A DNA stretch of 64,000 bases from Synechococcus sp. WH 8016 (GTDB lineage Bacteria > Cyanobacteriota > Cyanobacteriia > PCC-6307 > Cyanobiaceae), in contig NZ_AGIK01000002.1 in NCBI RefSeq assembly GCF_000230675.1, forward strand, positions 1 to 64,000, in the 5' to 3' direction. Below, piece after piece: positions 9,312 through 38,313 of the stretch. The notes beneath the pieces were generated by a model. The model was given only the letters and a program-made list of their open reading frames with translations, was not told where the DNA came from and made no database searches. A program made the translations under genes and the position numbers. Numbering within the stretch: position 1 is the stretch's first letter; every line of letters starts with the position of its first letter.

Positions 9312-10154
9312 ATGTCATCGTTCACGAACCCCTCTGCCATTGAACAGAGTGATGCCCAACGGTTCGGAGATTCACCCGAACGGGTTCGTGAAACCGATCA
9401 CTATGAGCAGGAATATATTGAACAATTTGTTGACCGATGGGATCGATTAATTGACTGGGAGGCGCGCGAAAAAGCAGAGGGAGATTTCTTTATCAAGCTA
9501 TTGCATCAGCACGGAGCCAAATCCGTCCTTGATGTCGCAACTGGAACAGGATTTCACTCTGTTCGCTTATTACGAGAAGGATTTGATGTTGTCAGTGTGG
9601 ACGGAAGTCCAAACATGCTGGCGCGTGCATTTAAGAATGCCCGTGAACGCGACTTATTAATGCGCACCGTGCATGCCGACTGGCGCTTCCTCAACCGCGA
9701 TGTGCATGGTGTTTTCGATGCGGTGATCTGCTTAGGCAATTCCTTCACCCACCTGTTCAGAGAGCAAGATCGACGCAAAGCTTTGGCGGAGTACTACGCC
9801 GTGCTGAAACATAACGGCGTACTGATTTTGGATCACAGAAATTACGATCGCTTGCTGGAAGGAAACTCCAAAAGTGGCAAAAGCAATGTGTACTGCGGCA
9901 AAGATGTTGAGGTTGGGCCTGAGCATGTCGACGACGGCCTCGCTCGCTTTCGCTACGCCTTCAGCGACGGGAGTACCTATCACTTAAATATGTTCCCTTT
10001 GCGTCATGGCTACGTGAGGCGCCTGATGCGTGAAGTGGGATTTCAACGAATCAATACCTTTGGCGACTACCAACAGGGCCATGACGATCCTGACTTCTAT
10101 GTGCATGTTGCGGAAAAGGAATACCGCTTTGACACCGACATGACTGCGATTTAA
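9312..10154 (+). CDS. Glycine/sarcosine N-methyltransferase (betaine synthesis, first steps)
   Basis: A SAM-dependent class I methyltransferase of 280 residues. The SAM motif is VLDVATGTGFHSVRLL, followed by VVSVDGSPNMLARA. The N-terminal DHYEQEYIEQFVDRWDRLIDW and C-terminal VHVAEKEYRFD match glycine sarcosine methyltransferase (GSMT), which makes sarcosine and dimethylglycine from glycine. The next gene 3 bp on encodes the matching SDMT, giving the three-step route to glycine betaine known from marine Synechococcus and halophiles. Located opposite the betaine importer. Confidence 0.9.
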   Translation: MSSFTNPSAIEQSDAQRFGDSPERVRETDHYEQEYIEQFVDRWDRLIDWEAREKAEGDFFIKLLHQHGAKSVLDVATGTGFHSVRLLREGFDVVSVDGSPNMLARAFKNARERDLLMRTVHADWRFLNRDVHGVFDAVICLGNSFTHLFREQDRRKALAEYYAVLKHNGVLILDHRNYDRLLEGNSKSGKSNVYCGKDVEVGPEHVDDGLARFRYAFSDGSTYHLNMFPLRHGYVRRLMREVGFQRINTFGDYQQGHDDPDFYVHVAEKEYRFDTDMTAI

Positions 10155-22146: not shown

Positions 22147-23661
22147 ATGGCTGCTGAGCATTTCTTCCTCGAGCTCGAACCACCAGAAGAACGTCTTCGC
22201 AACGCCCCTCATGTGGTGATCGTGGGAGGAGGCTTTGCTGGAGTTCGCGCCTGCAAAGCACTTGCCCAGGCAGAGGTGCGCATCACCTTGATCGACAAGC
22301 GCAATTTCAACCTGTTCCAGCCGCTTCTCTATCAAGTGGCAACGGGGCTCGTCGCTCCCGGAGATGTGGCAACACCCCTACGACAGCTCGTTGGCAAGCA
22401 GCGCAATGTTCAGGTCCTGCTCGGGGAAGTGAAGGGATTAGATGCCAAGAAGCGACAAATCAATTTCAGCGAAAAGGTCATCAGCTACGACCATTTAGTG
22501 CTGGCATCGGGCTCAGGCAGCACCTATTTCGGCCATGAAGAATGGCGCACCTTTGCGCCACCGATGAAAATTCTTGAGCATGCCCAGGAGATTCGTCGTC
22601 GCTTGCTGATGGCCATGGAGCAGGCAGAGCAAACACCTGATCCAGCGGCGCGCAAATTTCTTCAAACCGTGGTGATTGTGGGAGGGGGCCCTACGGGGTG
22701 CGAAATGGCAGGTGCCACCTCCGAATTAATGCGCAATGCCATGCGCCGTGAGTTCAAACAGCTCGATCCTGATGATTCAAGAATTATCGTGATCGACCCG
22801 GGCGATCGCTTGCTGAGGGCGATGCCTGAGTCGCTATCGGCCTCTGCCCAAAAGACACTGGAATCTCTTGGGGTAGAAACCCTCTTCAAAGGGCGGGTTC
22901 AGAGCATGCAGCCGGGAGAGGTCAGCGTTGGCACTCCAGATGGCGAGCAAACGATCCAAGCGGCAACCGTGATTTGGACGGCCGGGGTGCGCCCGTCTCA
23001 CCTTGGCAAGACCCTTGCAGCCTCGATCGATTGTGCATTGGATCGTGGTGGTCGGGTCATCGTTCAACCCGACTTCAGCGTGAAAGACCATCCAGAGATT
23101 CGGGTCGTGGGCGATCTCTGCAGCTACAAACACACCTCCACGGGCAATCCTCTACCGGGCATGGCCGGACCAGCAACGCAAGCTGGGGGCTTCGTCGGCA
23201 AGGACATCGCAGCGATCATCGGTGGACGCCAGCGCCCGAACTTCAAATGGTTTGATTTCGGCAGCATGGCTGTGCTGGATCGTGTTGCGGCCGTTGCTGA
23301 TCTGCGCGGCTTCAAATTCAGCGGGAGCCCAGGTTGGGCGGTTTGGGCAGCCGCACACCTGGCTTTCATGCCCGATCGAGAAAATCGCTGGTCCTTGCTG
23401 ATCAAGTGGATGTTTGCGGTTCTGTCACAGCAACGTTCATCGATGCTGCTCACAGGCATGCCATGTCAGCACATCGGTCTCGACTCTGCAGACGCACCGT
23501 TCCCAATGAACAGCGGCAGTGGCCCCTCGATTGCCGCTCCAGATGCGGCACTGAAAGCAGCCATGGATTACTACTCCAAGTCCGTGTCTGGTGTGCGTGT
23601 TCAGGATGGCGAAGCAGCCCGCGATGAATCCGCCACAGGATCAGACGCCGCCATCAAATAA
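22147..23661 (+). CDS. Type-2 NAD(P)H dehydrogenase
   Basis: A 504-residue two-dinucleotide-fold flavoprotein. The FAD motif is [17 protein letters not shown] near residue 25, the NAD(P)H motif [15 protein letters not shown] near residue 175, and the C-terminal flavin contact is RVVGDLC. NDH-2 enzymes oxidise NAD(P)H and reduce quinone without pumping protons; the C-terminal amphipathic region ([12 protein letters not shown]) would attach it to the membrane. The 3' end overlaps pyrB on the opposite strand by 61 bp. Confidence 0.92.
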
Positions 23662-24650
23662 AGCAGCGCCATCCTGATCGGGATTCCATTGCGAACTTGA
23701 TCCTCCACCAAGCAGATCGAGCGGTCATCCAAGAGGGCACCGCTCATTTCAACCCCACGATTCACAGGGCCTGGATGCAGCACAGGGCCTGAAAAAGAGC
23801 AGCGTCGCAACCGCTCATGGGTGAGCCCATAGTCACGGTGATAGCGATCCAGATCCGTGAGCAGATGATCGGTCATGCGTTCTTGTTGTAAACGCAACGT
23901 CATCACAGCGTCCGCACCCGACAAGCATTCATCCAGGTTGCGGCTGATCTGCAGCCTTCCACGCTGAGGGACAGGATCAACCGCTTGCCCAGGCGGAGGA
24001 GCATGCAAGAAGTCTGCGAAGGCATCGGGCACAAGACTGGGCGGCCCGCACAGCACCACATCCGCGCCGCAGGCACTGAGAGCCCAGAGGTTGGAGCGCG
24101 CTACGCGCGAATGCAACACATCGCCAACAATCCCAATGCGCTTGCCCTGCAAGGCCTCGGGTTGAGGGCGATGGGGATCGAAATGGTGCGCGAGCGTATA
24201 GAGGTCGAGCAAACCCTGGCTGGGGTGACTGTGCTGACCATCCCCCCCATTCAGCACAACGGTGCGCTCGCCGGCTTGATCCAACTCATGGGCCAGCTGG
24301 GCGGGGACATCCGTGCAGCGATGACGGATCACCAGCACATCCGCCCCCATCGCGACATAGGTGCGCGCTGTATCGAGCAGGGATTCGCCTTTGCTCAGAG
24401 AGCTGCTCGACGGGGAAAAACTCTGCACATCAGCAGACAAGCGCTTAGCGGCCAGCTCAAAGCTGCTGCGCGTACGCGTGCTGGGCTCAAAAAACAAGGT
24501 GGCCACCAATCGGCCCTGCAACGCCGGGAGTTTGCGAGCGCCCGTCACCGGCATCGAGCGAAAACGATGGGCAAGCTCGAGCACGGTGGCGTAGTCGTCT
24601 CGCGAGAACGCCGCCAAATCGAGCACATGCCGGTGCGACCACCCACTCAT
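23601..24650 (-). CDS. pyrB: Aspartate carbamoyltransferase, catalytic subunit
   Basis: Catalyses the second step of pyrimidine synthesis, carbamoyl phosphate plus aspartate to carbamoyl aspartate. Motifs: [19 protein letters not shown] (carbamoyl phosphate binding), [23 protein letters not shown] and [11 protein letters not shown] (aspartate binding). The start at 24650 overlaps the glycosylase stop as ATGA and is preferred over an ATG at 24659. The tail after ALLYLM runs about 15 residues longer than the usual end and overlaps the convergent NDH-2 gene. Confidence 0.96.
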
Positions 24651-25216
24651 CGCTGCCACTCCAGCGGTGGAATGAACGCCTGGTTCAAAGCAGGCATCCG
24701 ATCACCTTTGGCACGCCGGCTCACGCTGCGGGAGGCCCGCTTGTACCAACGCCAGGGCAAGTCCTGGGCCTGAGAGATTCCGATCCGCGTGGTGGTCACA
24801 AGCTCAAGGCTGTTGAGAACGGAGGGCCTTGGGGCCAACCACAGTTCATTCTCGCCACAGGCGGAGCTGTTGTCATGAACGCGGCTGATTTCAAAACGAC
24901 GGGACAGCAAACCAGGCCCCGCCGCAACCCGTTCAGGCTCGCCAGGCATGGCAACAGCACGAAGCAACACACCATTGGCCCAATCACTGCGATCCGTCAC
25001 CACATTCACGCAGTGGTGGATGCCATAGCTCACATACACATAAAACCGCCCTGGCTCGCCAAACAGGGTTTCGTTTTGCGGTGAGCGGCGGAGATAGCCG
25101 TGGCAGGCAGGCTCATCCTGGGAATACGCCTCCGTCTCCACAATCACGCCCCACAGCAACTCCCCAGAAAGTTGGCGTTTCACTAATAAACAGCCAATCA
25201 ACTCAGGTCCCACCAC
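24647..25216 (-). CDS. 3-methyladenine DNA glycosylase (MPG/AAG family), 5' end uncertain
   Basis: A base-excision glycosylase that removes alkylated purines. [52 protein letters not shown] and [12 protein letters not shown] are typical. The annotated start is a GTG at 25214-25216. The frame continues upstream and encodes [12 protein letters not shown], a conserved N-terminal part of this family, yet no ATG, GTG or TTG precedes it before a stop at 25313-25315. A non-standard start or a mutation may apply. Coupled to pyrB by a 4-nt overlap. Confidence 0.82.
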
Positions 25217-25375
25217 CTCGGCAGGACGGCAGAAGAAGGATTTGGGTAGAGCTGGGAAATCCTTGGAGATGGGCTGGGTGGCTATGGGCGTGGCTGGAGC
25301 AACAACCTTTCTTCACCTAAGTCTGACAACGCTGCTTGAATAAGAGACAATTGAATGATCTACATTCTTTCCCTG

Positions 25376-25624
25376 ATGTCAGAAGAGCAACTCCAAGCGT
25401 TCCTTGAAAAGGTTCAAGGCGACACCAGCCTTCAGGAGAAACTCAAAGCAGCTGCTGATGCCAATGCTGTTACTGCGATTGCAAAAGAAGCAGGTTTCAT
25501 TATTTCTGCTGATGATCTAACTAAGGCTCAATCCGAACTTTCAGAACGAGAGCTGGAAGGCGTAGCTGGAGGGAACAAGAATGAGCTGATTACTGGGTGG
25601 CTATGCGACTGGGGCTGGGGCTAA
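25376..25624 (+). CDS. Lanthipeptide precursor (Nif11-type leader, prochlorosin-like)
   Basis: An 82-residue peptide (an upstream in-frame ATG at 25355 would add seven). The first 66 residues are a Nif11-type leader (MSEEQLQAFLEKVQ, then KEAGFIISADDL and ELEGVAGG), closely like ProcA leaders, ending in a double-Gly site for a C39 peptidase. The 16-residue core is NKNELITGWLCDWGWG. It has one Thr and one Cys and no Ser, so at most one methyllanthionine ring (Thr7 to Cys11) can form, leaving a Trp-rich tail. A LanM and C39 exporter are encoded 1.3 to 12 kb away. Confidence 0.9.
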   Translation: MSEEQLQAFLEKVQGDTSLQEKLKAAADANAVTAIAKEAGFIISADDLTKAQSELSERELEGVAGGNKNELITGWLCDWGWG

Positions 25625-25639
25625 TCGGAATCTGATCAG

Positions 25640-25671
25640 AGTAAATGTTCACTTAAGTAAATGTTCACTTG
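25640..25671 (+). repeat. Tandem 16-bp direct repeat after the precursor gene
   Basis: AGTAAATGTTCACTT occurs twice end to end (25640-25655 and 25656-25671, differing in the last base). It lies between the precursor stop and the terminator, so it is in the 3' untranslated region. It may reflect slipped replication. Confidence 0.85.
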
Positions 25672-25682
25672 TTAGCACACTC

Positions 25683-25710
25683 AAACCCCCTGCCGCCGTA
25701 GGGGTTTTTT
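25683..25710 (+). terminator. Rho-independent terminator of the precursor gene
   Basis: A stem of AAACCCC (25683-25689) and GGGGTTT (25701-25707) with an 11-base loop, followed by T residues. It would end transcription of the precursor before the opposite-strand transposase, so the peptide is transcribed separately from the exporter operon. The rest of the gap up to 25890 is AT-rich with no other feature seen. Confidence 0.8.
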
Positions 25711-25890
25711 ATTTCTTCAATCAACACCATAAACCCTTAAATCAGCCTTTGATACCTGGCACCATTACAAAGTAGAAAGTTGCCTTGATGACTTATTTGG
25801 AAGGAACTAATCAGAAATAGTTATACATATTCACAACGAATCTACCCTTGACTTAATTTACTCTAAAAGTATTTATATTCCCTAGATTAA

Positions 25891-26676
25891 TCACCACAGC
25901 TTGAAGATTTGATCACCATCACGAATGCCATTGGCTCGTCTAAATCTCACCGCAAACTGATGCCACTCCTCTGGTATTTGATTGAGCCGAATATCAAATG
26001 CAAAGGGTAACTTCTGCTGTCCTGGTGAGACCCGGCTCTTCCTGCTTTGACTGCTTCTACCTTTTTCAACCAGCCGTTTCAGCATCCGTGAGCCCCAGTG
26101 GCACTTGGGAGCACCTTTGGCGTGATGACAATACTTCTGGCAGAAACGCTCATAACGCTTGGAGCATCCCTCCAATGTTGGCGCCAGTTGCAGGAAACTT
26201 GGGTGCCATTCGCTGATGCCATCACTCGCCAATCTGTCGTAGTGCCCATAGTTGGAATAGGGGTCATAAAACCCTTTTCTTATTCCTGCTGCCTTTGGAT
26301 TGGCGTGGATATACCGCAAGGTGTTGAGCACTCGCCTGTGGTCTTTAGGCGCAATGGCAGTGGCGTAATACCTGGCTTCCCAAAAGTGCCCGCAACGACC
26401 ACTCAGGCGGTTGAGTGCCATTGCTGAATACCAGCCAAACCAGTGCATCAGCTTTGGCAGTTGGCGTGCATCATCAGGTTTGATAAGCAGGTGCAGGTGA
26501 TTTGCCATCAAACAAACGGCATACAACCTGTGGGGCACCTTGCCTTGTGCCTTGGCGAGCACTGCTAAAAGCACATCACGCCTCAATCCCTTAGCAATCA
26601 AAAACTGACGGCTGTTGCATCTGAGCGTGATGTGAAAGGAATGTCCTAGAGGAAGCCGACGAGATGATCGACCCAT
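25891..26676 (-). mobile_element. RAYT/IS200-like tyrosine transposase (Y1_Tnp)
   Basis: A 261-residue HUH-type transposase. The metal motif is CLMANHLHLLIKP (His-x-His), and RYIHANPKAAGI plus the Tyr-rich FWEARYYATAI region match REP-associated tyrosine transposases. The protein looks intact. No clear inverted terminal repeats or target duplications were found beside it, which fits RAYT genes that act on short palindromes elsewhere. It sits on the opposite strand between the precursor gene and the exporter operon. Confidence 0.85.
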
Positions 26677-26889
26677 TCAATAAACGACCAGGTTCGCTGA
26701 TTATCACTATCAACTTGCACTTAAATCATGATCTAGGCTCATCCAAATCAAAACCAGATAAGGGATCACAGACTCACCAAACATAAAACCAAACAATTCG
26801 CTTAAAAATAGGCTATGTAGCATCAGAAGCCCTTTACAAATCAAAAAACCAGCTTAAGATCGTAAGAATGAGCACCTGAGGAGAGAACA
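26677..26889 (+). promoter_or_regulatory. Upstream region of the export operon, with ribosome site
   Basis: A 213-bp AT-rich gap between the transposase and the TolC gene. A strong ribosome site AGGAG (26879-26883) lies 6 nt before the ATA at 26890. A three-codon frame (ATG at 26868, stop at 26874-26879 area) overlaps this site. No confident -35/-10 pair could be picked. The promoter of the whole TolC-HlyD-ABC operon should be here. Confidence 0.45.
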
Positions 26890-28446
26890 ATAAGACTTTT
26901 TGCTCGAACCTCAGCTCTTGCAAGCCTGCTGGCATTGGTCGTGCTGCCAACAAAATCGGTAGAACTAAAGACAGGTGATAATAACAAAACAACAAGAGAA
27001 CCAATTAGTAATCTTGTTCAAAAGATTCCAGAAACTGACTCAGATCAACTCGTCAGCAGGCTGGAAAGACTACAAGACAACACAAAAAACAACAGTATTG
27101 CCATTAATATTGAAGAGGCGATTGCACTTGGAGTAAAAAACAATCCAGACTTAGAAGTTGCTTTTAGAGACATACAAGCTCTTGAATGGCAACTCATCGC
27201 AGCAAAGAGAAGATGGTTCCCTAAGCTTAGTCTCAACGGTGGACAACCATTCACAGGGTATCGATGGGAGACATTTGTAGAAAACAACTATGCCGAAAAG
27301 AGGGACCTCTCGACCACCCAAACCACATCAGAAACTTACAGTACACAGGCAAGGGCAACTGTCAGCTGGGACTTTCTTGATCTCAGCAGACAAGCAGACA
27401 TCAATGCAGCAGAAGATAAATTAAGAAGGCAAAAACTATTATTCAACGTAAGCGCAAGAAATCTAATTTTAAGAATCCAACAAGATTATTATGCCATTCA
27501 AAGCAGCGCTCAACTAATAGAAAGCTTTAAGGCAATCTATGCCATCAACAGGCAACAATTAAATATTCAAAAAGCAAGACAAGCGATTGGAATGTCAACA
27601 ATACTTGACGTAGCGCAAACAGAATCCCAACTCTTCTCTCAGCTCAATCAACTTGTAGGCTATACGCAAAGTTACAACATACAAGCTGGAAGACTGGCTC
27701 AAAGCCTTGCACTTCCACCTGGAAAACTTGCAATTCCAAACAAGGAAGCTGCTCCTCAAGGGATATGGACACAAGATTTAAATCAGACCATTGATGAAGC
27801 ACTGAAACAACGCGAAGAAGTACTTGCAAGCATTGCAGCAGCAGAAGCTGCAGAATGGGAGGGGATTGCAGCACTTAGGAAATACCTACCAGTCTTTTCG
27901 ATTCAAGCAGATGGCAATCTAGATCTCACCAATCGATTTCAAACTACACTCATCACAGAACAACCACGAACAAATCGAATTAATGATAGAGAAAGATGGT
28001 CAGGAGCCATTGGCATTGGTTTTCGATGGAATGCATTCGATGGAGGAATTAGTGCAGCAAATGCACAATCACAATTCGCCCAGAGCCGCAAATTCCTCGC
28101 TGAAGCAAGCTTATCAAAATTAGAAATCACCCAGCAGGTTCAATCAAGTTATAGTCAAATGGAAACCGCACGGATAGGGATCAAAAGCGCGGAGCAGGCC
28201 TATCGCAGTGCGGAAATCGCCCAAGAAGCAGCAAGAGCACGATTGGATGTGGGCGTAGGAGATATTTTTAGCGTTGTACAAGCGATTGGTCTTCTTTCTA
28301 GTGCAGCAGTACAAAAATCACAATCTACTCTGAACTACAACAACTCGATTGCTGAACTTTATCGTTATTCGGCAAATTGGCCTTTAGATAGCTATAAAGA
28401 TGTGGAGTTAAGAGTCAAAACAAATAACCAAACAACCAAGCCATGA
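26890..28446 (+). CDS. TolC family outer membrane efflux protein (lanthipeptide export)
   Basis: An outer membrane channel of the TolC family, about 518 residues. It carries a signal peptide (RLFARTSALASLLALVVL) and two repeats with long helices such as ALEWQLIAAKRRWFPKL and ILDVAQTESQLFSQL. The only ATG/GTG/TTG in frame (TTG at 26935) would cut the signal peptide; reading from the ATA at 26890, which has AGGAG 6 nt upstream, restores a complete one. The stop overlaps hlyD as ATGA. With HlyD and the ABC proteins it completes an envelope-spanning type I exporter. Confidence 0.87.
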   Translation: MRLFARTSALASLLALVVLPTKSVELKTGDNNKTTREPISNLVQKIPETDSDQLVSRLERLQDNTKNNSIAINIEEAIALGVKNNPDLEVAFRDIQALEWQLIAAKRRWFPKLSLNGGQPFTGYRWETFVENNYAEKRDLSTTQTTSETYSTQARATVSWDFLDLSRQADINAAEDKLRRQKLLFNVSARNLILRIQQDYYAIQSSAQLIESFKAIYAINRQQLNIQKARQAIGMSTILDVAQTESQLFSQLNQLVGYTQSYNIQAGRLAQSLALPPGKLAIPNKEAAPQGIWTQDLNQTIDEALKQREEVLASIAAAEAAEWEGIAALRKYLPVFSIQADGNLDLTNRFQTTLITEQPRTNRINDRERWSGAIGIGFRWNAFDGGISAANAQSQFAQSRKFLAEASLSKLEITQQVQSSYSQMETARIGIKSAEQAYRSAEIAQEAARARLDVGVGDIFSVVQAIGLLSSAAVQKSQSTLNYNNSIAELYRYSANWPLDSYKDVELRVKTNNQTTKP

Positions 28447-29849
28447 GCCAACTTTTCAACGATCGAGCCCTGAAACAACGCCACAGAAGTGGGGATCGAA
28501 ACGGACCGGTAACTTTACTCACTCCGCCATTGCGAGCAACGCTCGGATTGGGTGCGCTTATCGCATTAGCGGGTGGAGTATGGGCAACGTTCGCCAGAAT
28601 TCCTGTGAGTGTACAAGGAAGTGGTGTCTTGCTACCGGTCAGTACAATCAACGCGAGCTTAAGTGGAACCAATGGAAGCGCAGTTTACATGTTTAACAAA
28701 CCACAAAAAGAGTGGCATAAAAAAGCTCGATATTTTGCAACTTCCCCAGACAAAGTTACAAATGAAGAGCTCCTTAAGCTGGCAAAGTCTATCTATGAAG
28801 AGAGTTACAACACCGTATCTTTAGCGTCAGGAAGCAGTGCATCTGAAATTTTCGCTCGCAATCTCAAAGAAACCTTTACTGGACTAAAAGTGCCAAAAGG
28901 GCAGCTCATGATGTGGATTCAGTCATCAGGTGAGCTGGAGCGACTGAGCAGCACCATTGAAGATGTAGAACGAGCCATAGCAACAAATAAAGCTCAAAGA
29001 GAAAATATCGAGCGCAAACAAATCATCTTAGGAAAGGAGCTAAAGAGCAGATCCTCCTATCTACAAAGCATGAATGACTTAGCAAAAAAGGGGTTTGTCA
29101 ATATGCAGAGCATCTTGCAAGAGCAGTCACAGGTTGACAACGTAAAGTCGCAGATACTCAACAACAATGATCAGCTAATTGAAATTATAAATAAGCTTGC
29201 AGAGTCATACTCTTCATTGCGAGGTCAAACAGCAAAGCTTATCAACAAACAATTAATCTATGCTGGACAAGATCTCTACATCTCAAGCATTATTCCGAAT
29301 AATGGAGAGGGGGTTGGAGAAGGGGATGTACTGATGCAACTGAGCAACAATCAACTTGATCAACCAGTCATGGTTCCAGTTTTTCTGAGTAGCAAGGAAA
29401 TGGCACAGGTCTTTCCAGGAATGCAAGCACTAGCAACACCGTCGGGATACAAGCGTTCAGAAGTGGGGGGGATACGCGGAAAAGTTGTATCGATGGCCAA
29501 ATTACCTAGCGGACTTCAAGAAGTGAAAGCACGCACTGGCGTGAAAGCCCTAGCCCAATCCATTGTGTCTGAGGAACCTGTACCGACACTGGCTGTCGTA
29601 GCGCTCGAACAAAGTGATCAAAGCCCGATCAATGGTGGAGGCTATCGATGGAGTTCCGATTCAGACCTTCCCTATCCCCCAACACCGGGCGATTCATTGA
29701 GTGTAGAAATTACAACAAGAAAAGTAGCTCCAATCTCCTTGGTCATTCCTGCAATTCGCAGCTTTTTTGGAATTACCCCACCTGAAGCACCAAAAGGAGC
29801 GGCTAAGCAAGGAAGCCGCGCTGAAACCGATCAAAGTGATAATCGATGA
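28443..29849 (+). CDS. HlyD family secretion adaptor (NHLM-type)
   Basis: A 468-residue membrane fusion protein. One N-terminal membrane helix (LGLGALIALAGGVWATFA) is followed by a first barrel strand (VSVQGSGVLLPVSTINAS), a long coiled coil (about residues 155-270, from SSTIEDVERAIATN), and a return barrel with DVLMQLSNNQLDQP. This matches secretion proteins of NHLM-type bacteriocin export systems. It bridges the ABC exporter and the TolC-like channel. Overlaps of 4 nt on both sides mark it as part of one translationally coupled operon. Confidence 0.9.
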   Translation: MSQLFNDRALKQRHRSGDRNGPVTLLTPPLRATLGLGALIALAGGVWATFARIPVSVQGSGVLLPVSTINASLSGTNGSAVYMFNKPQKEWHKKARYFATSPDKVTNEELLKLAKSIYEESYNTVSLASGSSASEIFARNLKETFTGLKVPKGQLMMWIQSSGELERLSSTIEDVERAIATNKAQRENIERKQIILGKELKSRSSYLQSMNDLAKKGFVNMQSILQEQSQVDNVKSQILNNNDQLIEIINKLAESYSSLRGQTAKLINKQLIYAGQDLYISSIIPNNGEGVGEGDVLMQLSNNQLDQPVMVPVFLSSKEMAQVFPGMQALATPSGYKRSEVGGIRGKVVSMAKLPSGLQEVKARTGVKALAQSIVSEEPVPTLAVVALEQSDQSPINGGGYRWSSDSDLPYPPTPGDSLSVEITTRKVAPISLVIPAIRSFFGITPPEAPKGAAKQGSRAETDQSDNR

Positions 29850-32056
29850 ATAAAACATTGCAACGCAAACGCGTGAAAGCACGAACACGCTTGCAATACG
29901 AAGCCGCCGAATGCGGAGCGGCCTCACTCGCCACAATCCTTGATTATTTCGGAAAAATTGTTGAGCTAAGCGAGTTGCGAGCAGCCTGCGGCGTGAACAG
30001 GGATGGGTCCAATGCAAAACAGGTTTTGCTAGGTGCACGTCAATACAAACTCAAGACTCGTGCCTATCGCTGTTCTGGTGATCAGCTCCAGGCAGAGGGC
30101 CGCTTCCCATGTGTTGTGTTTTGGGGGTTTAATCATTTCCTCGTTGTAGAAGGCTTTGAAGGAAACCATGCCTATTTGAGTGACCCGGCACAAGGACGGG
30201 TGCGCGTACTAATGGAGGAGTTTCTCGACAGTTTTACAGGGGTCGTCCTTGAATTCGAACCAGGGCCAGAATTCATTGCAGAAGGGAAGCAACCAACCCT
30301 GGTATGGAGTCTCATCCGTACACTTTTGCCATATCAGTCATCCTTATTTCAACTCCTGGTTGTTTCAACAGGGCAAGCAATTTTAACGCTACTAGTAGCT
30401 GGATTAACCTCCACATTCATTGACAGTTTTCTACAAAATCAACGTCTTTATTTTGGAATACCAATCATCTGGCTTCTACTCTTAAGCATTATTGGATGGC
30501 TTACCTTATTAGGAATCCAGTTCGTAATCCTAAGACGAATGGAACTATTGCTTTCAAAAAGACTAACGGCAGATCTATTCAGAAAATTATTTCAAGTATC
30601 ATTCGACTTCTATCAAACCCGTTTCCAAGGCGAAATCGCGAGCAGGTTACTACTTGGAATGGAAACAACTCAAGTTTTAGTGGCAAGGCTTGTACGTTTC
30701 ATGAGCTCGATATGGATTGCATCACTCGTTCTGATTTTTGCATTTGCAATCTCCCATTGGTTAGCACTCCTGGTGCTCACGATCATGGCTGGCAATTTAG
30801 GGTTGAACTGGTGGCTTACAGATCAACGTTATGACGCCAATCGAAAGTTAGCCATTGAAGAAGGAAAAGCTCAAGGAAAGGGACTACAAGGTATCAACAA
30901 CATTGAATCCCTGAAAGCCTCTGGTCTGGAATTTGACTTCCTAAGCCAATGGCAAGGCAGTTTTGGGAATGTAGTTATCCAAAATCAACAATTAGGAGCG
31001 CAAATGGCTTTATCTACTATCACCGCTAGTGGTAGTAGCTTCCTCCTTAATGCTCTCATTATCGCAGCAGGCGGATTTCTAATCATTGCAGGAAAGATAT
31101 CGCTAGGCACACTTGTAGCTTTCCAGTTCCTGCAAGGTCAAATCACAGCACCTATTTCGACCCTGCCTCAAATCAATTCAGCCATCCAAAGGCTTATTGG
31201 AGACTTGGGGAGATTAGAAGATCTACGCAAAAACAACAACGATCCATTAGTACGAAGCTTTAAACTTCTTGATGAAAGCAATACAAAACATCAAAAAGTC
31301 TCAACAAAACTCGCAGGGAATATTGAACTAAAAAATCTCAATTTTGGATTCACTCCAACTGCAGAACCATTCATTAAGAATCTGAATTTATCGATACCAG
31401 CAGGCTCTCAGTTATCCATTGTTGGAAGTAGTGGGTCCGGAAAAACAACCTTAATTAGAATCCTAGCTGGACTGTATACAGCATCTTCCGGTGAGCTTTT
31501 ATTTGACCATCAAGCCTGGGAAGAGCATGGCGACCAAACGATGCGGAGTAGCTTGGCTTACGTTCCCCAGCAGGTGTTTATCTTTAACGCAAGTATTGAA
31601 GACAATATTACACTTTGGAATCCGAAATATAGATTGAGTGAACTTGAAGTCGCAGCAAAAGATTCTGAGATTCTTTCAACAATTAGCAATCATCCAGAAG
31701 CCTTTCAACGACAGCTCAAAGACAATGGCAAAGATTTGAGTGGCGGAGAGCGCCAACGAATAGAGATTTGCCGAGCACTTTTGCGTCAACCGAGCATTCT
31801 TCTATTTGATGAGGCAACAAGCGCATTGGATAACGCTACTCAGTCCAAAGTGCTTGATACTCTCAAGGCAAAGGCAATTACGGTTGTCAATGTGTCGCAC
31901 CGACTTGACGCTGCTTTAAGAAGTGACGCTGTATTAGTAATGCAAAATGGTGATGCTATCGAATACGGCCCTCCAGCCAAATTGATGTCAAATAAATCTG
32001 CTTTTTATGATTTAGTCCAATCTGAGAAAGCTGAATCGATAGGGATGAAATCATGA
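29846..32056 (+). CDS. Peptidase-containing ABC exporter (C39 domain)
   Basis: A bifunctional transporter of 736 residues. The N-terminal C39 peptidase carries the catalytic Cys23 in YEAAECGAASLATIL, Gln17, His97 in FNHFLVVEGF and Asp113 in LSDPAQGR. Five or six membrane helices follow, then an ABC domain with Walker A GSSGSGKTT, signature LSGGERQRIE and Walker B ILLFDEATSALD. It should cut double-Gly leaders such as the one at 25376 and export the core. It is the key processing enzyme of this cluster. Confidence 0.95.
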   Translation: MNKTLQRKRVKARTRLQYEAAECGAASLATILDYFGKIVELSELRAACGVNRDGSNAKQVLLGARQYKLKTRAYRCSGDQLQAEGRFPCVVFWGFNHFLVVEGFEGNHAYLSDPAQGRVRVLMEEFLDSFTGVVLEFEPGPEFIAEGKQPTLVWSLIRTLLPYQSSLFQLLVVSTGQAILTLLVAGLTSTFIDSFLQNQRLYFGIPIIWLLLLSIIGWLTLLGIQFVILRRMELLLSKRLTADLFRKLFQVSFDFYQTRFQGEIASRLLLGMETTQVLVARLVRFMSSIWIASLVLIFAFAISHWLALLVLTIMAGNLGLNWWLTDQRYDANRKLAIEEGKAQGKGLQGINNIESLKASGLEFDFLSQWQGSFGNVVIQNQQLGAQMALSTITASGSSFLLNALIIAAGGFLIIAGKISLGTLVAFQFLQGQITAPISTLPQINSAIQRLIGDLGRLEDLRKNNNDPLVRSFKLLDESNTKHQKVSTKLAGNIELKNLNFGFTPTAEPFIKNLNLSIPAGSQLSIVGSSGSGKTTLIRILAGLYTASSGELLFDHQAWEEHGDQTMRSSLAYVPQQVFIFNASIEDNITLWNPKYRLSELEVAAKDSEILSTISNHPEAFQRQLKDNGKDLSGGERQRIEICRALLRQPSILLFDEATSALDNATQSKVLDTLKAKAITVVNVSHRLDAALRSDAVLVMQNGDAIEYGPPAKLMSNKSAFYDLVQSEKAESIGMKS

Positions 32057-34224
32057 CCATAAAAGAATCTAGACAGGCTCTTTCAGCGGCACAAAACCTA
32101 GAAGAAGAATTACTTTTTAGTCTTCCTCCAGACGATGATCATCACCCTGAGATGCGCTTGATTGGGTTTTGTCTTCATAAGCTAGGACGTCGAGATCAAA
32201 AGATTGAGCCTTTGGTAGGAGCCAGCATTGTTGAATTGCTTGACTACAACGATATTCATCATCGATCGGTAATCGCTCCCCGTGATTTGAGCACACGCCA
32301 CTGGGATCTTGATCCTACAAATGACAGCGAATTCCCATTGATGATTGTGTTTGACGAAAGCAATCAAGAACCCCTAGCTCTCTATCGAGCCAACGGCGAA
32401 AATTGGCTTTATAGCGGTCACCAACAAAAACATATTCTCGCCACTGAATTAACCGGTCTAACAGATAATGCATATGAAATATACCCCTCATTACCTACAC
32501 TCGTAAAAGGACCTCTTTCGGTTTTAAGCTTTGCTTTTTTATCAGAATTTGGTCCCATATCAGCTCTTCTTGCAGCGTCTGGAGTCGTGATGTTGTTTAA
32601 CCTCTCCATCCCGATCTTAACCAACACACTAGTCAGCAAAGTACTGCCCCAAAATGACCAACAATTGCTAGTAGAGGGAGTCAGCGTCGTCGTCCTCATC
32701 GTGATTGGTTCCGTCACAACATCTTTTCTTCAAAACTTGATGATGCTTAGGCTTGAAAGTGTAGCCGATTTAAGGTTGCAATCAGCCGTTTGGGACCGGC
32801 TCATGCGTTTGCCGATGAGTTTTATTAGCCAATATTCAACAGGAGATCTATCATCTAGAGTCAATTCTATTAGCCAGCTTCGCCAACTCTTGGGAAGTGG
32901 AGTGTTGACAACACTTTTGTCAACCCTGTTTTCGCTAAGCTACTTCGTGCTGATGTTTATCTACGACAAGCAATTGGCATTATGGGCCTCAGCCTTTACT
33001 TTAACAGCTGTTATATGCCTTCTAGGGATTACATGGAAATCTATTCAATTACAATTACCATTGCTCGAAAGTGGTGCTGAGATCACCAACTTCTCATTAC
33101 AATCCGTGATGGGCATGCCACAAATTCGTAGCGCTGGGGCAGAACCTTTCCTCCTTTTGCGCTGGATGCGTGAGATTAATCGCTATGCCCTAATCCAATT
33201 GCGCAACAACATCTACAACGATGCCATTGAGCAATATGGAACAGTCGTGTCTCCCCTCTCATCGCTGTTCCTTTTTTCAGTGGTTGCCTATCGAATCCTC
33301 ACAAGCCCAGATCAGGCCAATGCGAATCAAATTATTGTTGCTTTTATATCGTTCAATGCAGCATTTACCAGCTTCAATAGTGCTGTGACCAATGCGGTGA
33401 ATTTGATTGCGAATACCGCTGGACGCGCCGCTGTGCTTTGGAAGAGAGCAGAACCCGTGATGTATGCCGATGTTGAGCAAGGATACCAATCAAGTGCACT
33501 CCATCATCACTTACATGGAGAATTTAAGCTGCAACACATCACCTTTGAATTTCCTGGAAGCTCTGAACCCCTCTTTAAGGATCTTTGCTTCAAAGTTCCT
33601 GCTGGAGCGCATACGGCGATTACTGGGCCAAGTGGCTGTGGGAAGACCACTTTAGTGCGCATGCTTCTGGGTTTCACGATCCCTCAGGCTGGAGAGATTC
33701 TGATTGATGGAATTCCTCTCGGACAACTTTCCATCCGCTCTTATCGCAGACAAATGGGAGTGGTGATGCAAACAGCAAGGCTCAATTCAGGCTCAATTTA
33801 TGACATCATCTGCGGTGGAATTCAACGCGACGAAAGCGCAATCTGGGATGCTCTCGAAAAAGCTGCCGTCGCAGATGAAGTAAAAGCGATGCCCATGCAG
33901 TTAGAAACTCTTCTTAGTGATTCAGGCGGAAACATCTCAGGAGGGCAAGTGCAACGCATTGCTATAGCCAGAGCATTGATTACCAATCCAAAAGTTCTTA
34001 TCATGGATGAGGCCACCAGCGCTCTCGACAACAAAGCGCAACAGCACATCACAGAAACAATCAATAACCTCGGCATCACCCGAATCAGCGTTGCCCACCG
34101 CCTATCAACCATTCAAAATGCTGATCAAATCGTGATTCTTGAGAAAGGCCAATCAACCGAATCAGGCAGCTGGGATTCTCTCAAAAATCATGGCTATTTA
34201 AAACGGATGCTCGCCAGTCATTGA
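32053..34224 (+). CDS. ABC exporter half-transporter without active peptidase (NHLM-type)
   Basis: A 723-residue ABC protein. Its N-terminal ~150 residues lack the Cys and His of C39 and instead resemble the extra domain of the second NHLM ABC protein. A six-helix core (LSFAFLSEFGPISALLAASG onward) and ABC domain follow, with Walker A TGPSGCGKTTL, signature ISGGQVQRIAIAR and Walker B VLIMDEATSALD. It probably pairs with the preceding C39 transporter. The stop overlaps lanM on the other strand by 7 nt. Confidence 0.92.
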   Translation: MTIKESRQALSAAQNLEEELLFSLPPDDDHHPEMRLIGFCLHKLGRRDQKIEPLVGASIVELLDYNDIHHRSVIAPRDLSTRHWDLDPTNDSEFPLMIVFDESNQEPLALYRANGENWLYSGHQQKHILATELTGLTDNAYEIYPSLPTLVKGPLSVLSFAFLSEFGPISALLAASGVVMLFNLSIPILTNTLVSKVLPQNDQQLLVEGVSVVVLIVIGSVTTSFLQNLMMLRLESVADLRLQSAVWDRLMRLPMSFISQYSTGDLSSRVNSISQLRQLLGSGVLTTLLSTLFSLSYFVLMFIYDKQLALWASAFTLTAVICLLGITWKSIQLQLPLLESGAEITNFSLQSVMGMPQIRSAGAEPFLLLRWMREINRYALIQLRNNIYNDAIEQYGTVVSPLSSLFLFSVVAYRILTSPDQANANQIIVAFISFNAAFTSFNSAVTNAVNLIANTAGRAAVLWKRAEPVMYADVEQGYQSSALHHHLHGEFKLQHITFEFPGSSEPLFKDLCFKVPAGAHTAITGPSGCGKTTLVRMLLGFTIPQAGEILIDGIPLGQLSIRSYRRQMGVVMQTARLNSGSIYDIICGGIQRDESAIWDALEKAAVADEVKAMPMQLETLLSDSGGNISGGQVQRIAIARALITNPKVLIMDEATSALDNKAQQHITETINNLGITRISVAHRLSTIQNADQIVILEKGQSTESGSWDSLKNHGYLKRMLASH

Positions 34225-37200
34225 TGAGGAAACAATCCAGCACTCATCAAGCCCCAAAGCATCCTTTGGGATGATGGATTATTCATGATGGCCAAGCCCA
34301 TTCCACTCAGACCAGTCATTAATCCAGGAAGGAACAGAGAGCCTTCCTGAGTTTGAAAACATCGCAAATCCAGCTTTCCACCGCTGCACCGATCGAGCAC
34401 CGAAGCACGATAACGATTGGCTTTCAGTGCAGCCAGCGAACACGTTTCTACGTCCGTGCACCAAGGACCACTAACCACAGCTTCCAACACAGCCATGAGG
34501 CCGAGGCCTCCGCAACAGAGATGATCCATCCTCGGCTCAGGCTGAGCCGAGATGGTTTGGATGGCGATCTTGATTTCCTCCTCACACTGTTGATCCCAAA
34601 GATCAGTCCCCCACAGGCAGGCCCTGCCAAGAGCGATCCCTGGAGCGCCATGACACCACGCCACCATGAAAGAGGGCTGAGCATCAGCGGCCTTTAATGG
34701 ATCACGAAAGTCAGGCCAATTGCCCTGATCGGCCTGAAAGAAACTGCGCTCATAGGCCAAAGCCGCTTCCGCTCCCCGCCGAAAACGCTCCTCACCTGTT
34801 GCAACATGCAGGCGAGCAAGAGCCGCTGCATAACCGGCTGTTCCATGGGAGAAGCCAAGCAGGCCTTGGGTGTCTCGACCCGACAGCCAACAGCCCTGCT
34901 CTTGTTGCCTCTCCAGCAAATGATCACCGGCGGTCATGGCCAAGCGCAGAGCACCCTCAGACTTTTGAGCCAATAAAGAGCCAATCAACCCCGCACTCCC
35001 ACCAATCACATCCAATTGCTGATCGGCCGCGATGAAACGCGGGAGCGCAGCATCCACCAACACATCCACCCATGCACGCCTACCAAGTTGCTGCAATCCA
35101 AGCAAGATCCCGCCACATCCACTGATTCCTAGCGACTGATCTCTCCACCAGCGCAGACGTGAATCGCCTGATTGCTGGCTCATCAATGGTTCCATTCCAA
35201 TCAAAATGGAACTGGACAACGCATCACCAATCGCAGGGGAGATGTCCTGCTGACGCAGACACGTCTCCAAGCACGCAATTCCGATCGATCCGCCATACAG
35301 CGACAAGCCCACCGGCCCAAACGAGAAATTTTCCCCATCCGCGCCTAAATCCATCCCAAGCCACTCCACCTGGCCATTGGAATCACGAATCGCCATCTGA
35401 GCCAAGCGATTGAAGATCGCAACAGCGACCTCATTAGTCCGATCAGAAGCAGTCTCATGATTGATTGAACCATCAACCTCTGAAGATGACGATTTCTGGA
35501 CTTCAGCCTCAGATTCAAGCAAGACTCTTGCAGAAGAGGAACCCGCAATTAACTCCATCTGGAATTCAATTTCTTCAGGGGAGAGCTGCACCAAACGTTC
35601 ATGGGCAGAGGCCAAGCCACTCGTCTCCAAAAAGCCAGGAAGCTGCCAGTCAGCTTCATCAAGATCCAGAGCATCACCATCAATTGGATGCGTAAAGAAG
35701 GGAATGTCCAATTGCCTCATCTGCTCCAGCTCAGCAGCAAAAACTGGCCAGTGATGAGGTCGCGATTCTGCAAGCAAAAAACTGCGCGCCAGCTGCTCCA
35801 ACTTCAAAGCCTGTGCCAAGGGAGAACGCAAGGCTTCTGGCTCAAGCTGTTGGCGTTGGATCGCAAAATAAACCCGGGTCGCTCGCAACACAATCCGGCG
35901 AGGCAATCCGATAAACAACGACAAAACCCCACCTGGCTGAAGCCAGGCATCACGCACAGAGATGAGCTCATCACATTGCACTTTAAATCCTTTTTGGAAT
36001 CGAGAAAGATAGTGGTCAAATACATTTTTTGAACCTATTCCCACTGGCAAACTTGTTGGCATTTCAGCATCCGCATTGATGCGTCCAGGCATCATCCCAT
36101 CGCTATTAAGGCCAAGCCATCCAGGCATCTTTGCCTTTTTATGCTTCGGAGGCGTCACACCAAAAGCACTGATATCAACGGCTATTTTGTGTCCTCCAAG
36201 AAACATCCATTGAGGCAAAAGCCCCGATCGCAACACGGAACGCTGGAAGCGCTTCTGCAACCCCGATGGTGTGATCAGGTCAAGCTGTGAAGATGCATCA
36301 TTCACATAATCAAGAACATCTGCCTCCAACAAGGTCTCGGTATCAATCAAGAGCATCTGATCTCCGCAGGCGATCAGATTTTCATGATGACAATCCGTAC
36401 AGCCAAGAGCATGAAGAACAGCCGTCAATCGTCCAGAATTAAAATAAAACTGTTCCAACTCTTTCTCATCGACACAAATCCGATGCGACACATATTCCAT
36501 ATAGCCATAACCTTGGCCACAATGAATCTCCAGCAATCTCAACGGAGCCAAATCACTGCGCTGATTGAGATCCAACAAAACCCGCTGATAAGCAGCATCA
36601 ACCCCCATATCTTTCGGCTTATACACAACTTTTAGAGCTGAAGTTTCATCAGCCTCCAATCCAAAACTCAAAATCGCTACGGCACGACCGCCGCGATGTG
36701 GATCACTCAATCCTTGCTTAATTCCGTCCAAACACAGATGGGCTGGAATCCCAAATTTGGACTCAAGATCCAAACGATCCGAACTCACTCGCTCAAGCAT
36801 GTCTACCGATGCTTGCAACCAGAGCTCAATCACCGTGCCCACGAATCGGCCTAGCTCAGGAAACTCGAGCAGCAACAACTGCAAGCCATCGCGGCGATGA
36901 CGTTGCACAAACGCCTCGTAATGCTCACGCACAGGAGGACCAGAGCCATCACCGGCAGCACCCAGGTGAGCGAGGAGCATCGTGCCTGGCGTGCGCTCAG
37001 AAGAAAAGCAAGACCACAACACCTGCTCACCGATAGAGCACAAACGCTGCATCAAGCCATCGGCCAGCTGCGACAACGCTGCCGGTGCAATCCGTCGATC
37101 ACGCACGCTGGAACCGATCTCTTCTTGCAGCCAGGCAATGGCAGGCGCATGCAAGGGCTGCCAAAGGTCCAAAAAAGGAAGCTGATCGTCTTCGGAAGAG

Positions 37201-37433
37201 ACGGGCAGCAATGGCAAATCCCATGCCTCTTTCAGCAACTCAGAGACGAGAGCCAGCCTGTTCTGCCAATCCGAGCTCCCTTGTTGATTCTCCGTACCGT
37301 CCGACTTCAACCACGTTTCAAATTCCCCTTCTGACAGACCATCCCAGGACAAACGCCGCGCAAACTTGTGAGGCTCATCCGGCGCCACCGCCGCTTGCCA
37401 GAGAGAAACCCAGGACTGAGCAGATTGACCCAT
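34218..37433 (-). CDS. lanM: Type 2 lanthipeptide synthetase LanM (ProcM-like, CCG type)
   Basis: A ~1,071-residue bifunctional enzyme (1,088 from a TTG at 37484, which has GAGAGG upstream; numbers here use that form). The N-terminal dehydratase shows ALKVVYKPKDMGVD and CTDCHHENLIA with LLIDTETLLE, kinase-like phosphorylation sites for Ser/Thr. The C-terminal cyclase has GFSHGTAGYAAAL, WCHG (Cys944) and CCGG (Cys990, Cys991). Three cysteine zinc ligands with spacing 46/47 match ProcM Cys924, Cys970, Cys971, the promiscuous CCG-type synthetases. It installs the (methyl)lanthionine in Nif11-leader peptides. Confidence 0.96.
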   Translation of the reverse strand: MGQSAQSWVSLWQAAVAPDEPHKFARRLSWDGLSEGEFETWLKSDGTENQQGSSDWQNRLALVSELLKEAWDLPLLPVSSEDDQLPFLDLWQPLHAPAIAWLQEEIGSSVRDRRIAPAALSQLADGLMQRLCSIGEQVLWSCFSSERTPGTMLLAHLGAAGDGSGPPVREHYEAFVQRHRRDGLQLLLLEFPELGRFVGTVIELWLQASVDMLERVSSDRLDLESKFGIPAHLCLDGIKQGLSDPHRGGRAVAILSFGLEADETSALKVVYKPKDMGVDAAYQRVLLDLNQRSDLAPLRLLEIHCGQGYGYMEYVSHRICVDEKELEQFYFNSGRLTAVLHALGCTDCHHENLIACGDQMLLIDTETLLEADVLDYVNDASSQLDLITPSGLQKRFQRSVLRSGLLPQWMFLGGHKIAVDISAFGVTPPKHKKAKMPGWLGLNSDGMMPGRINADAEMPTSLPVGIGSKNVFDHYLSRFQKGFKVQCDELISVRDAWLQPGGVLSLFIGLPRRIVLRATRVYFAIQRQQLEPEALRSPLAQALKLEQLARSFLLAESRPHHWPVFAAELEQMRQLDIPFFTHPIDGDALDLDEADWQLPGFLETSGLASAHERLVQLSPEEIEFQMELIAGSSSARVLLESEAEVQKSSSSEVDGSINHETASDRTNEVAVAIFNRLAQMAIRDSNGQVEWLGMDLGADGENFSFGPVGLSLYGGSIGIACLETCLRQQDISPAIGDALSSSILIGMEPLMSQQSGDSRLRWWRDQSLGISGCGGILLGLQQLGRRAWVDVLVDAALPRFIAADQQLDVIGGSAGLIGSLLAQKSEGALRLAMTAGDHLLERQQEQGCWLSGRDTQGLLGFSHGTAGYAAALARLHVATGEERFRRGAEAALAYERSFFQADQGNWPDFRDPLKAADAQPSFMVAWCHGAPGIALGRACLWGTDLWDQQCEEEIKIAIQTISAQPEPRMDHLCCGGLGLMAVLEAVVSGPWCTDVETCSLAALKANRYRASVLDRCSGGKLDLRCFQTQEGSLFLPGLMTGLSGMGLAIMNNPSSQRMLWGLMSAGLFPHQ

Positions 37434-37545
37434 GGGGAGAGAGCACTCAGCACAATCCAGTGTGCTCAAGACAAGCCAATCCAACCGCGCCCTCTCAGCT
37501 GACGCATCAACACAAACCGATGATCAAACTATTAGGACGCCAACG

Positions 37546-38313
37546 ATGAACGACGACCCCATGTCGACATCAGCCACAACCACCACACGCCAAATCCAAG
37601 CCCGGCGCGACATGGTGTTTCTTGTGCTGGCCGGACTCTTCCTCGGCACCCTGGGGATGCTAAACATCCTTGGCCTGACACGATTTCTAGCGCTCGGCAA
37701 GATTGGATCTTGGCCCATCGTGGTGGCCATTGGCGCCCTCCCCTATCCGGTCACCTTTTTATGCACCGATCTGATTAGTGAGCTTTGGGGTGAGGAGCGA
37801 GCCACTCAGCTGGTGTGGGTCGGTCTTTTGCTGAATGGATGGGTGGTCTTAATTCTGTGGCTGGGAGGCCTCCTGCCAGGCCTCAACGGCGCTCCAGAAT
37901 CCACATTTTTTGAAATTCAACGCCTGGCCTTTGGGTCGATCGGTGCCTCGATGGCGGCTTACCTCACGGCCCAATTTGTGGATGTTCGTTTGTTCCACTT
38001 TTGGAAACAACGCACCAATGGCAAAGCCCTCTGGCTCCGCAACAACGGCTCCACCTTGGTGAGCCAATTGGTGGACACCAGTGCCGTGGTGTTGATCAGC
38101 CATTACGCCGCCCATGTGTTGCCCATCCGCGCCGGAGAAGCGGTGCTTCCTCAGCTGGGAGCTTTCATCGCCAGCGGCTATTTGTTCAAAGCCCTCGCCG
38201 CTTTTGCTGACACCCTTCCCTTCATCTGGCTCACCGCCTGGTTACGCGATTGGCTTGATGTTCCGGGAGACGGAAAGGAGATCATTCCCATGAGATCGGC
38301 GCGACTCCGGTGA
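37546..38313 (+). CDS. Queuosine precursor transporter (YhhQ/VUT family)
   Basis: A 255-residue membrane protein with about six helices (from VFLVLAGLFLGTLGMLNILG). The pattern YPVTFLCTDLISELWGEERA and NNGSTLVSQLVDTSAVV is typical of the YhhQ/VUT family, thought to import queuosine precursors such as preQ0. ATG at 37546 is taken as start; another ATG five codons later is possible. It is divergent from lanM with about 110 bp between starts. Confidence 0.88.
   Translation: MNDDPMSTSATTTTRQIQARRDMVFLVLAGLFLGTLGMLNILGLTRFLALGKIGSWPIVVAIGALPYPVTFLCTDLISELWGEERATQLVWVGLLLNGWVVLILWLGGLLPGLNGAPESTFFEIQRLAFGSIGASMAAYLTAQFVDVRLFHFWKQRTNGKALWLRNNGSTLVSQLVDTSAVVLISHYAAHVLPIRAGEAVLPQLGAFIASGYLFKALAAFADTLPFIWLTAWLRDWLDVPGDGKEIIPMRSARLR

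What the first reader, a model, noticed from the sequence alone, without database searches (positions are those of the whole stretch)
25376..37433. Prochlorosin-like lanthipeptide cluster with a complete dedicated export operon
A Nif11-type leader peptide, a C39-peptidase ABC exporter, a second NHLM-type ABC protein, HlyD, a TolC-family channel and a CCG-type LanM sit within 12 kb. In described marine picocyanobacterial systems precursor genes are often scattered around the genome away from the synthetase; here a precursor, the synthetase and a full TolC-HlyD-ABC line lie together. The TolC-hlyD-ABC-ABC genes are joined by 4-nt overlaps, which points to one export unit.
Basis: partly seen in the sequence, partly recalled or inferred. 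Interest (0 to 1): 0.9.

Follow-up and report, generated by a model that had tools for sequence, protein, structure and literature searches.

The report
Lanthipeptide cluster fed by integrating element
A marine cyanobacterium carries an intact but ordinary set of genes for making and exporting a ring-shaped peptide, and the gene for the peptide itself appears to be cargo of a small DNA element that integrates into the neighbouring DNA-repair gene, which would help to explain how such peptide genes multiply.

Summary
In detail: Nif11 precursor, TolC, HlyD, C39 ABC exporter, second ABC protein and a CCG-type LanM lie at 25376-37433, with 4-nt overlaps inside the export operon. As a system this is a known kind (prochlorosin-type class II lanthipeptide locus with NHLM-like exporter). 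Of 20 family genomes with both LanM and this exporter, 13 have them adjacent, 2 apart, 5 on different contigs. It is not one operon: the precursor is a separate unit and LanM is convergent. TolC lacks a normal in-frame start.

The surprise is next door. The precursor lies beside mpg (methylpurine-DNA glycosylase). A small contig of the same genome (C10) joins the window exactly at a 20-bp core inside mpg and carries the end of a second precursor, a RAYT transposase, a Rep-like gene and a tyrosine integrase. Relatives hold such integrase elements between full-length mpg and a displaced mpg 5' fragment that ends at the same base. One (G253) is complete: 4134 bp between 20-bp direct repeats, precursor as cargo. 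Truncated mpg 5' ends sit 154-171 bp from 14 other precursors, but 113 of 132 precursors have none. I conclude that an mpg-targeting integrative element delivers and multiplies these precursors (inferred; excision not shown).

The parts
23601..24659 (-). pyrB-like gene (name by recall), left border of the mpg-yhhQ chromosomal slot
   Evidence: same order NDH2-pyrB-mpg in relatives
24650..25216 (-). mpg, methylpurine-DNA glycosylase, integration target of the element
   Evidence: Pfam PF02245 E 1.6e-44; truncated copies in relatives
25005..25024 (-). 20-bp att core GGCATCCACCACTGCGTGAA inside mpg
   Evidence: homology to contig C10 ends exactly at 25005
25005..25563 (.). segment whose two ends are shared with the two ends of contig C10 (141 and 110 nt exact); implied repeated or collapsed segment
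25376..25624 (+). Nif11-leader lanthipeptide precursor; core NKNELITGWLCDWGWG (25574-25621) after AGG
25686..25710 (+). terminator-like hairpin plus T run after the precursor
   Evidence: by eye
25891..26676 (-). RAYT/IS200-like Y1 transposase; a homologue is part of the element in C10 and G253
26890..28446 (+). TolC-family outer membrane channel; signal peptide in frame only from ATA 26890 (TTG 26935 called by the ORF listing)
28443..29849 (+). HlyD-type adaptor (TIGR03794 best hit, under cut-off)
29846..32056 (+). C39 peptidase ABC exporter (TIGR03796 best hit, under cut-off), triad intact
32053..34224 (+). second ABC permease/ATPase (TIGR03797 best hit, under cut-off)
34218..37433 (-). LanM lanthionine synthetase, CCG type; ATG at 37433, TTG at 37484 also possible
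37546..38313 (+). yhhQ-like gene (queuosine precursor transporter), right border of the slot; start uncertain (ORF opens at 37432)

Best explanation
Two layers. (1) Biosynthesis: the LanM dehydrates Thr and closes a methyllanthionine ring with Cys in the core (TGWLC), the C39 ABC protein removes the leader at the double glycine and, with HlyD, TolC and the second ABC protein, exports the peptide; this follows from family membership and intact motifs and was not measured. (2) Supply of precursors: the precursor gene is cargo of a small integrative element of about 4.1-4.2 kb. A tyrosine recombinase inserts the circular element into a 20-bp core in mpg. The element brings its own mpg 5' end, so mpg stays whole, and the old mpg 5' end with the old precursor beside it is pushed to the far side of the element. 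Repeated integration and later deletions leave arrays and scars: truncated mpg 5' ends upstream of precursors and RAYT 3' remnants downstream. Shown: fixed breakpoint, direct repeats, integrase next to it, unoccupied mpg-yhhQ junctions, partly mosaic mpg. Inferred: circular intermediate, active excision, roles of Rep and RAYT, order of events.
For: Contig C10 (3913 bp, same genome) ends in exact matches to window 25005-25145 and 25454-25563 and carries RAYT (one stop), two small ORFs, a Rep-like protein and an integrase (PF00589, E 1.9e-16). G253 has the whole element: mpg-precursor-RAYT-orfY-orfX-rep-int-mpg', int 93% and rep 89% identical to C10, 4134 bp between two copies of the 20-bp core. 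Of 33 core sites in the fetched loci, 17 are in full-length mpg (one per genome), 12 stop being mpg exactly at the core edge (7 followed by GCGAGCC), 4 run on. 9 of 14 fetched int genes of 60% identity or more lie at mpg. Unoccupied mpg-yhhQ junctions in G295 and G193. Of 25 mpg N-terminal ends in the first set of fetched loci, 19 have a divergent precursor 154-171 bp away, 14 of them truncated mpg; genome-wide in 12 genomes, 11 of 14 truncated mpg hits do. In some pairs the two parts of mpg disagree: G029 and G071 (same genus) share 92.3% of the 3' part but at most 85.8% of the normally better conserved 5' part.
Against: 113 of 132 precursors called have no mpg end directly upstream, so most copies spread otherwise or lost the trace. 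Five of the 14 int genes are not at mpg in the DNA I hold (G254, G134 twice, G081, G105, the last a contig end); three further int matches of 60% or more, all partial (G249, G247, G339), were not fetched. Gene content is loose: among the 9 elements at mpg only 3 have RAYT and 5 have rep, and precursors were not found in G126, G134, G171 or G260. RAYT copies occur without LanM (G075, six copies). C10 could be an excised circle, a tandem copy or a population variant; read coverage is not available. The C10 and window transposase regions are only 87% identical while the shared ends are nearly identical, which may mean gene conversion. Many loci were fetched because they held int or precursors, which biases counts. 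In the mosaic test other pairs (G271/G289, G126/G171) agree in both parts; it was ungapped and has no null model.
Confidence: 0.78

Rival explanations
1. Precursors multiply by plain tandem duplication and illegitimate recombination at the mpg-precursor-rayT locus; mpg and RAYT remnants are passengers and the integrase is a coincidental visitor.
For: Junctions where a RAYT 3' fragment runs directly into an mpg 5' fragment at varying positions (my reading: about RAYT aa177|mpg -332, aa182|-228, aa195|-226, aa230|-261) look like tandem-duplication joints or later deletions.
Against: 12 fragments stop at the same base of the core, in genomes of several genera; 11 of these 12 have an integrase or its remnant beside them (not G193), and some carry no lanthipeptide precursor. 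Most of those loci were, however, fetched because of their integrase.
Confidence: 0.13
2. [quoted passage not shown] title only seen).
For: A RAYT 3' end lies 150-350 bp after a precursor in 25 of 37 cases in fetched loci; transposases of this kind near prochlorosins are mentioned in PMC10783134 section 8.
Against: Element ends are at the mpg core, not at RAYT ends; the integrase elements exist without RAYT (6 of 9 at mpg) and, in G126, with RAYT but no precursor. RAYT may still act within the precursor-bearing elements, all of which I saw with RAYT or its remnant (C10, G253; decayed G169, G271).
Confidence: 0.12
3. The pathway in this strain is decaying: few intact precursors, a TolC gene without a normal start, so the cluster may be weakly or not expressed.
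For: One complete precursor plus one continuing on C10, two degraded copies; ATA or internal TTG start of TolC. Relatives have up to 30 leader matches (G071).
Against: The catalytic and ATPase motifs checked are intact and the long frames are open; a plausible ribosome-binding GAGGAG precedes the ATA (by eye).
Confidence: 0.2

Closest known systems
Prochlorosins/synechococsins (ProcA or SyncA with ProcM or SyncM), PMC10783134
   Same: Nif11 leader with double glycine, Cys-containing variable core, CCG LanM, type I export genes near LanM
   Different: Short 16-residue core with one Thr and one Cys; very few precursors in this genome; precursor tied to an mpg element
NHLP/N11P export triad TIGR03794/03796/03797 (Haft 2010, PMC2887384)
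   Same: Same three components beside a Nif11 precursor
   Different: Scores are best hits but below the equivalog cut-offs; a TolC gene is added in the same operon
LahT150 C39 protease (PMC6363468; PDB 6mpz)
   Same: Aligned over residues 5-142, E 1.7e-44, same catalytic triad; the paper reports that LahT150 cleaves five ProcM-modified ProcA peptides
   Different: From Lachnospiraceae bacterium C6A11; the protein here is a full exporter of a type I system
dusA-targeting genomic islands (PMC4482086, start of abstract only)
   Same: Integrase element integrating inside the 5' part of a conserved protein gene
   Different: Target is mpg, size about 4 kb, cargo a lanthipeptide precursor, Rep-like and RAYT genes
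Tycheposons of Prochlorococcus (recalled; only showed that one held paper contains the word)
   Same: Integrative elements of picocyanobacteria with tyrosine recombinase and variable cargo (recalled)
   Different: Recalled to use tRNA sites; here the site is mpg. Relationship not tested

Membership tests
Prochlorosin-type class II lanthipeptide locus | Nif11 leader ending in double glycine, core with Cys and Ser/Thr | tested here: met
   TIGR03798 87.4 bits over 32.3; GVAGG-NKNELITGWLCDWGWG
Prochlorosin-type class II lanthipeptide locus | LanM with CCG zinc motif | tested here: met
   TIGR03897 732.1 bits over 304; CHG at 927, CCG at 973
Prochlorosin-type class II lanthipeptide locus | Several divergent precursors for one LanM | tested here: inconclusive
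   One intact, one split between C10 and the window, two degraded
Prochlorosin-type class II lanthipeptide locus | Dehydration and thioether ring formation | not testable with these tools
   needs mass spectrometry
NHLM export system (TIGR03794/6/7 equivalogs) | Scores above curated cut-offs | tested here: not met
   84.5 of 156.2, 658.5 of 853.3, 547.6 of 709.4; works like it, not a formal member
Site-specific integrative element | Tyrosine recombinase next to one att site | tested here: met
   PF00589; int beside the displaced mpg fragment in C10, G253, G360, G126, G134 (two), G171, G141, G260
Site-specific integrative element | Direct repeats at both ends and unoccupied target in relatives | tested here: met
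   20-bp repeats 4134 bp apart in G253; mpg next to yhhQ in G295 and G193
Site-specific integrative element | Excision and circular form | not testable with these tools
   needs PCR or reads; the C10 end joins are compatible
RAYT (NF047646) | Score above curated cut-off | tested here: not met
   61.1 of 80; Y1_Tnp Pfam hit 50.1 over 23
HUH-type Rep | HxH and Tyr motifs, similarity to a Rep family | tested here: inconclusive
   Invariant H99-T-H101 and Y156 in six sequences; phrog_3584 replication initiation, E 3.8e-4; no Pfam hit
Tycheposon | tRNA att site and characteristic gene set | not tested
   definition only recalled

The most novel reading that the evidence does not exclude
A family of small integrative elements specific for the mpg gene, with an integrase, often a Rep-like gene, and a cargo place next to the mpg 5' end, is the vehicle that delivers and multiplies lanthipeptide precursor genes in marine picocyanobacteria; each integration adds a new precursor and leaves the old one tagged with an mpg stub, so the precursor repertoire grows like a cassette array.
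Probability: 0.5. Interest if true: 0.8.

Novelty: new variant of a known kind. Interest (0 to 1): 0.6.

Why it matters
Marine picocyanobacteria hold dozens of prochlorosin precursors for one enzyme (PMC10783134), and how these genes arise, move and diversify is open. If precursors are cargo of an mpg-specific element, their gain becomes a definable event with a known site, testable by PCR across the mpg core and by an integrase assay. It could also account for part of the reported association with TnpA-REP transposases, since the precursor-bearing elements seen here carry one, and it gives a genomic tag, the mpg stub, for tracing precursor history. The biosynthetic cluster itself is ordinary.

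Tried and rejected
Rejected: the idea that LanM-exporter co-location is special. Rejected as sole cause: RAYT-driven mobility (RAYT occurs without LanM, 6 of 9 mpg elements lack it, element ends are elsewhere). A first reading of the mpg scars as tandem-duplication joints was replaced when breakpoints proved identical; variable RAYT|mpg joints remain and are read as later deletions or duplications.

Rep had no match in the phage and plasmid collections; int only weak phage matches, best listed 27%, and none confirmed in viral contigs. In one search the TolC query was in the wrong frame (31 stops); its TolC rows are disregarded and were redone. Literature: searches listed no paper that I recognised as linking mpg or an integrase to lanthipeptide precursors; they return ranked, capped lists of an open-licence library. 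The most relevant preprint (Laurenceau et al.) and a PNAS paper on prochlorosin evolution that I recalled (Cubillos-Ruiz et al. 2017) are not held, so priority cannot be settled. Papers seen: PMC10783134 outline, sections 4 (part 1 of 3), 8, 12, reference list part 2 and passages; PMC2887384, PMC6363468 and PMC7522525 passages; PMC4482086 start of abstract in a listing.

One search was a submission that did not fit the form.
Full report
Observation. The window holds, left to right, mpg (24650-25216, minus), the Nif11 precursor (25376-25624, plus), a RAYT-like transposase gene (25891-26676, minus), TolC, HlyD, C39 ABC and second ABC genes (26890-34224, plus, three ATGA overlaps), LanM (34218-37433, minus) and yhhQ. 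The motifs checked are intact; the C39 triad aligns to LahT150. The export genes look like one unit; the precursor and LanM are not part of it. The TolC frame has an in-frame stop upstream, and its signal peptide can be made only from ATA 26890; the close relative L011 (MAG TMED88) has an in-frame ATG.

Is the arrangement special? Of 400 family genomes 25 have a LanM above the cut-off and 32 have this exporter at E 1e-150 or better; 20 have both. I fetched 20 loci from 18 genomes, chosen mostly because LanM and exporter lay near each other. Of the 20, 13 have them adjacent (seven convergent, window included; six co-directional), two have them far apart (G071, G186), and five have them on different contigs of draft assemblies, which decides nothing. 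In G071 a LanM 3' stub stays at the exporter and in G029 an ABC2 3' stub stays at LanM, traces of a former union. The literature already describes such neighbourhoods (PMC2887384 passages; PMC10783134 section 4). So the cluster is an ordinary member.

Precursors. The genome has 13 Nif11 matches. Only three resemble the window leader at E 1e-9: the window gene, C10 and a degraded copy at C1:553,679; a DNA match at C1:366,053 is a broken remnant. The other Nif11 proteins show no double glycine followed by a Cys-containing core. Contig C10 starts inside a nearly identical leader and holds a second RAYT. Its precursor end consists of 66-nt repeats of the leader end and would read ...GVVGG-TVMLTKAQSELSEVLGVC if the leader is that of the window.

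The element. C10 ends in an exact match to window 25005-25145, inside mpg, and starts with an exact match to 25454-25563. Between lie RAYT (one stop), two ORFs of about 50 aa, a 180-aa Rep-like protein and a 357-aa tyrosine recombinase. The same set, 88-94% identical for int, rep and the two ORFs, lies in G253 between a full-length mpg with a precursor and a truncated mpg (RAYT). A family-wide search with the integrase (30 of 400 genomes at E 1e-20) and 17 further loci showed int beside a truncated mpg 5' end, with full-length mpg at the other side, in G253, G360, G126, G134 (two in tandem), G171, G141 and G260; with C10 that is 9 of the 14 fetched int genes of 60% identity or more. Of these 9, five have rep and three have RAYT (C10, G253, G126). 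All of them except G141 leave mpg at the same base after GGCATYCACCACTGCGTSAA; G141 runs on by about 16 nt. Among 33 core sites 17 are in full-length mpg, 12 stop exactly at the core, 4 run on; two of the 12 (G081, G271) have degenerate cores and G081 is not at mpg. In G253 the repeats are 4134 bp apart; here the implied length is 4221 bp. The unoccupied junction, mpg next to yhhQ, is seen in G295 and G193. Cargo differs: a precursor in G253 and here, and in a decayed copy in G271; an inverse-autotransporter-like ORF (weak, below cut-off) in G126; an 881-aa TPR protein in G260; transposase-like and other ORFs in G171 by eye. No Nif11 precursor was found in the element loci of G126, G134, G171 and G260, and these genomes have no LanM match.

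Scars. With the window mpg as query, 12 genomes gave 25 hits, 11 full-length and 14 truncated; 11 of the 14 have a divergent precursor 154-171 bp away, the exceptions being G253:2,479,896, the C10 copy and a weak hit in G295. In the first set of fetched loci, at a laxer threshold, 19 of 25 mpg N-termini have one, 14 of them truncated and five full-length. 132 precursors were called in those loci (146 leader matches genome-wide), so 113 have no mpg end directly upstream. RAYT 3' ends lie 150-350 bp after a precursor in 25 of 37 cases. As a control, 25 other genomes were searched: truncated mpg hits occur in 4 (G260, G289, G141, G271); among the 17 without LanM, two of which gave no mpg hit at all, only G260 has one, and it holds the element with other cargo. 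mpg is mosaic in some pairs: G029 and G071, of one genus, share 92.3% in the 3' part but at most 85.8% in the 5' part, where G071 is closest to G271 (93.2%); other pairs agree in both parts (ungapped comparison, no null model).

Mechanism. The simplest account is site-specific integration of a small circular element into mpg, with restoration of mpg by the element's own 5' end and displacement of the former 5' end and its precursor. Repetition builds tandem precursors beside mpg; deletions or duplications create RAYT|mpg joints. How precursors without a scar reached their places is not explained. Whether C10 is integrated in tandem, an excised circle or a variant in the culture cannot be told without reads.

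Novelty. The chemistry and exporter are known kinds. Association of lanthipeptide genes with TnpA-REP transposases is in the title of a preprint that I could not read. I saw no mention of mpg, an att site or an integrase as vehicle in the listings named under Tried and rejected, but the two most relevant papers are not held. I therefore rate it a new variant of a known kind: a protein-gene-targeting integrative element with a lanthipeptide precursor as cargo.

Noticed in passing
L110 (own contig C10) 1-243: Second precursor end built from 66-nt tandem repeats of the leader end (two exact copies and a partial one), giving two GVVGG motifs in a row; a possible route to new cores.
   Followed up: partly
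window 26868-26935: TolC lacks an in-frame ATG; signal peptide starts at ATA 26890 after GAGGAG, while an out-of-frame ATG at 26868 meets TGA as its fourth codon.
   Followed up: partly
L077 4494-4631 and L090 7577-7825: Reciprocal 3' stubs of LanM (G071) and ABC2 (G029) where the two units have been separated.
   Followed up: no
G075, six places: Six intact RAYT copies, 88-90% identical to the window one, in a genome without LanM: RAYT may be independently mobile.
   Followed up: no
L190 (G081) near 9546: Element with int, rep, orfX, orfY and RAYT at a degenerate core (GGGATACACCACTGCGAGAA) outside mpg: possible secondary site.
   Followed up: no
G000 C1:23603 and C1:876273: Nif11 proteins ending in PGEYN and PGEYPHRY, resembling the conserved GEYH/N group F of PMC10783134, apparently not lanthipeptide precursors.
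   Followed up: no
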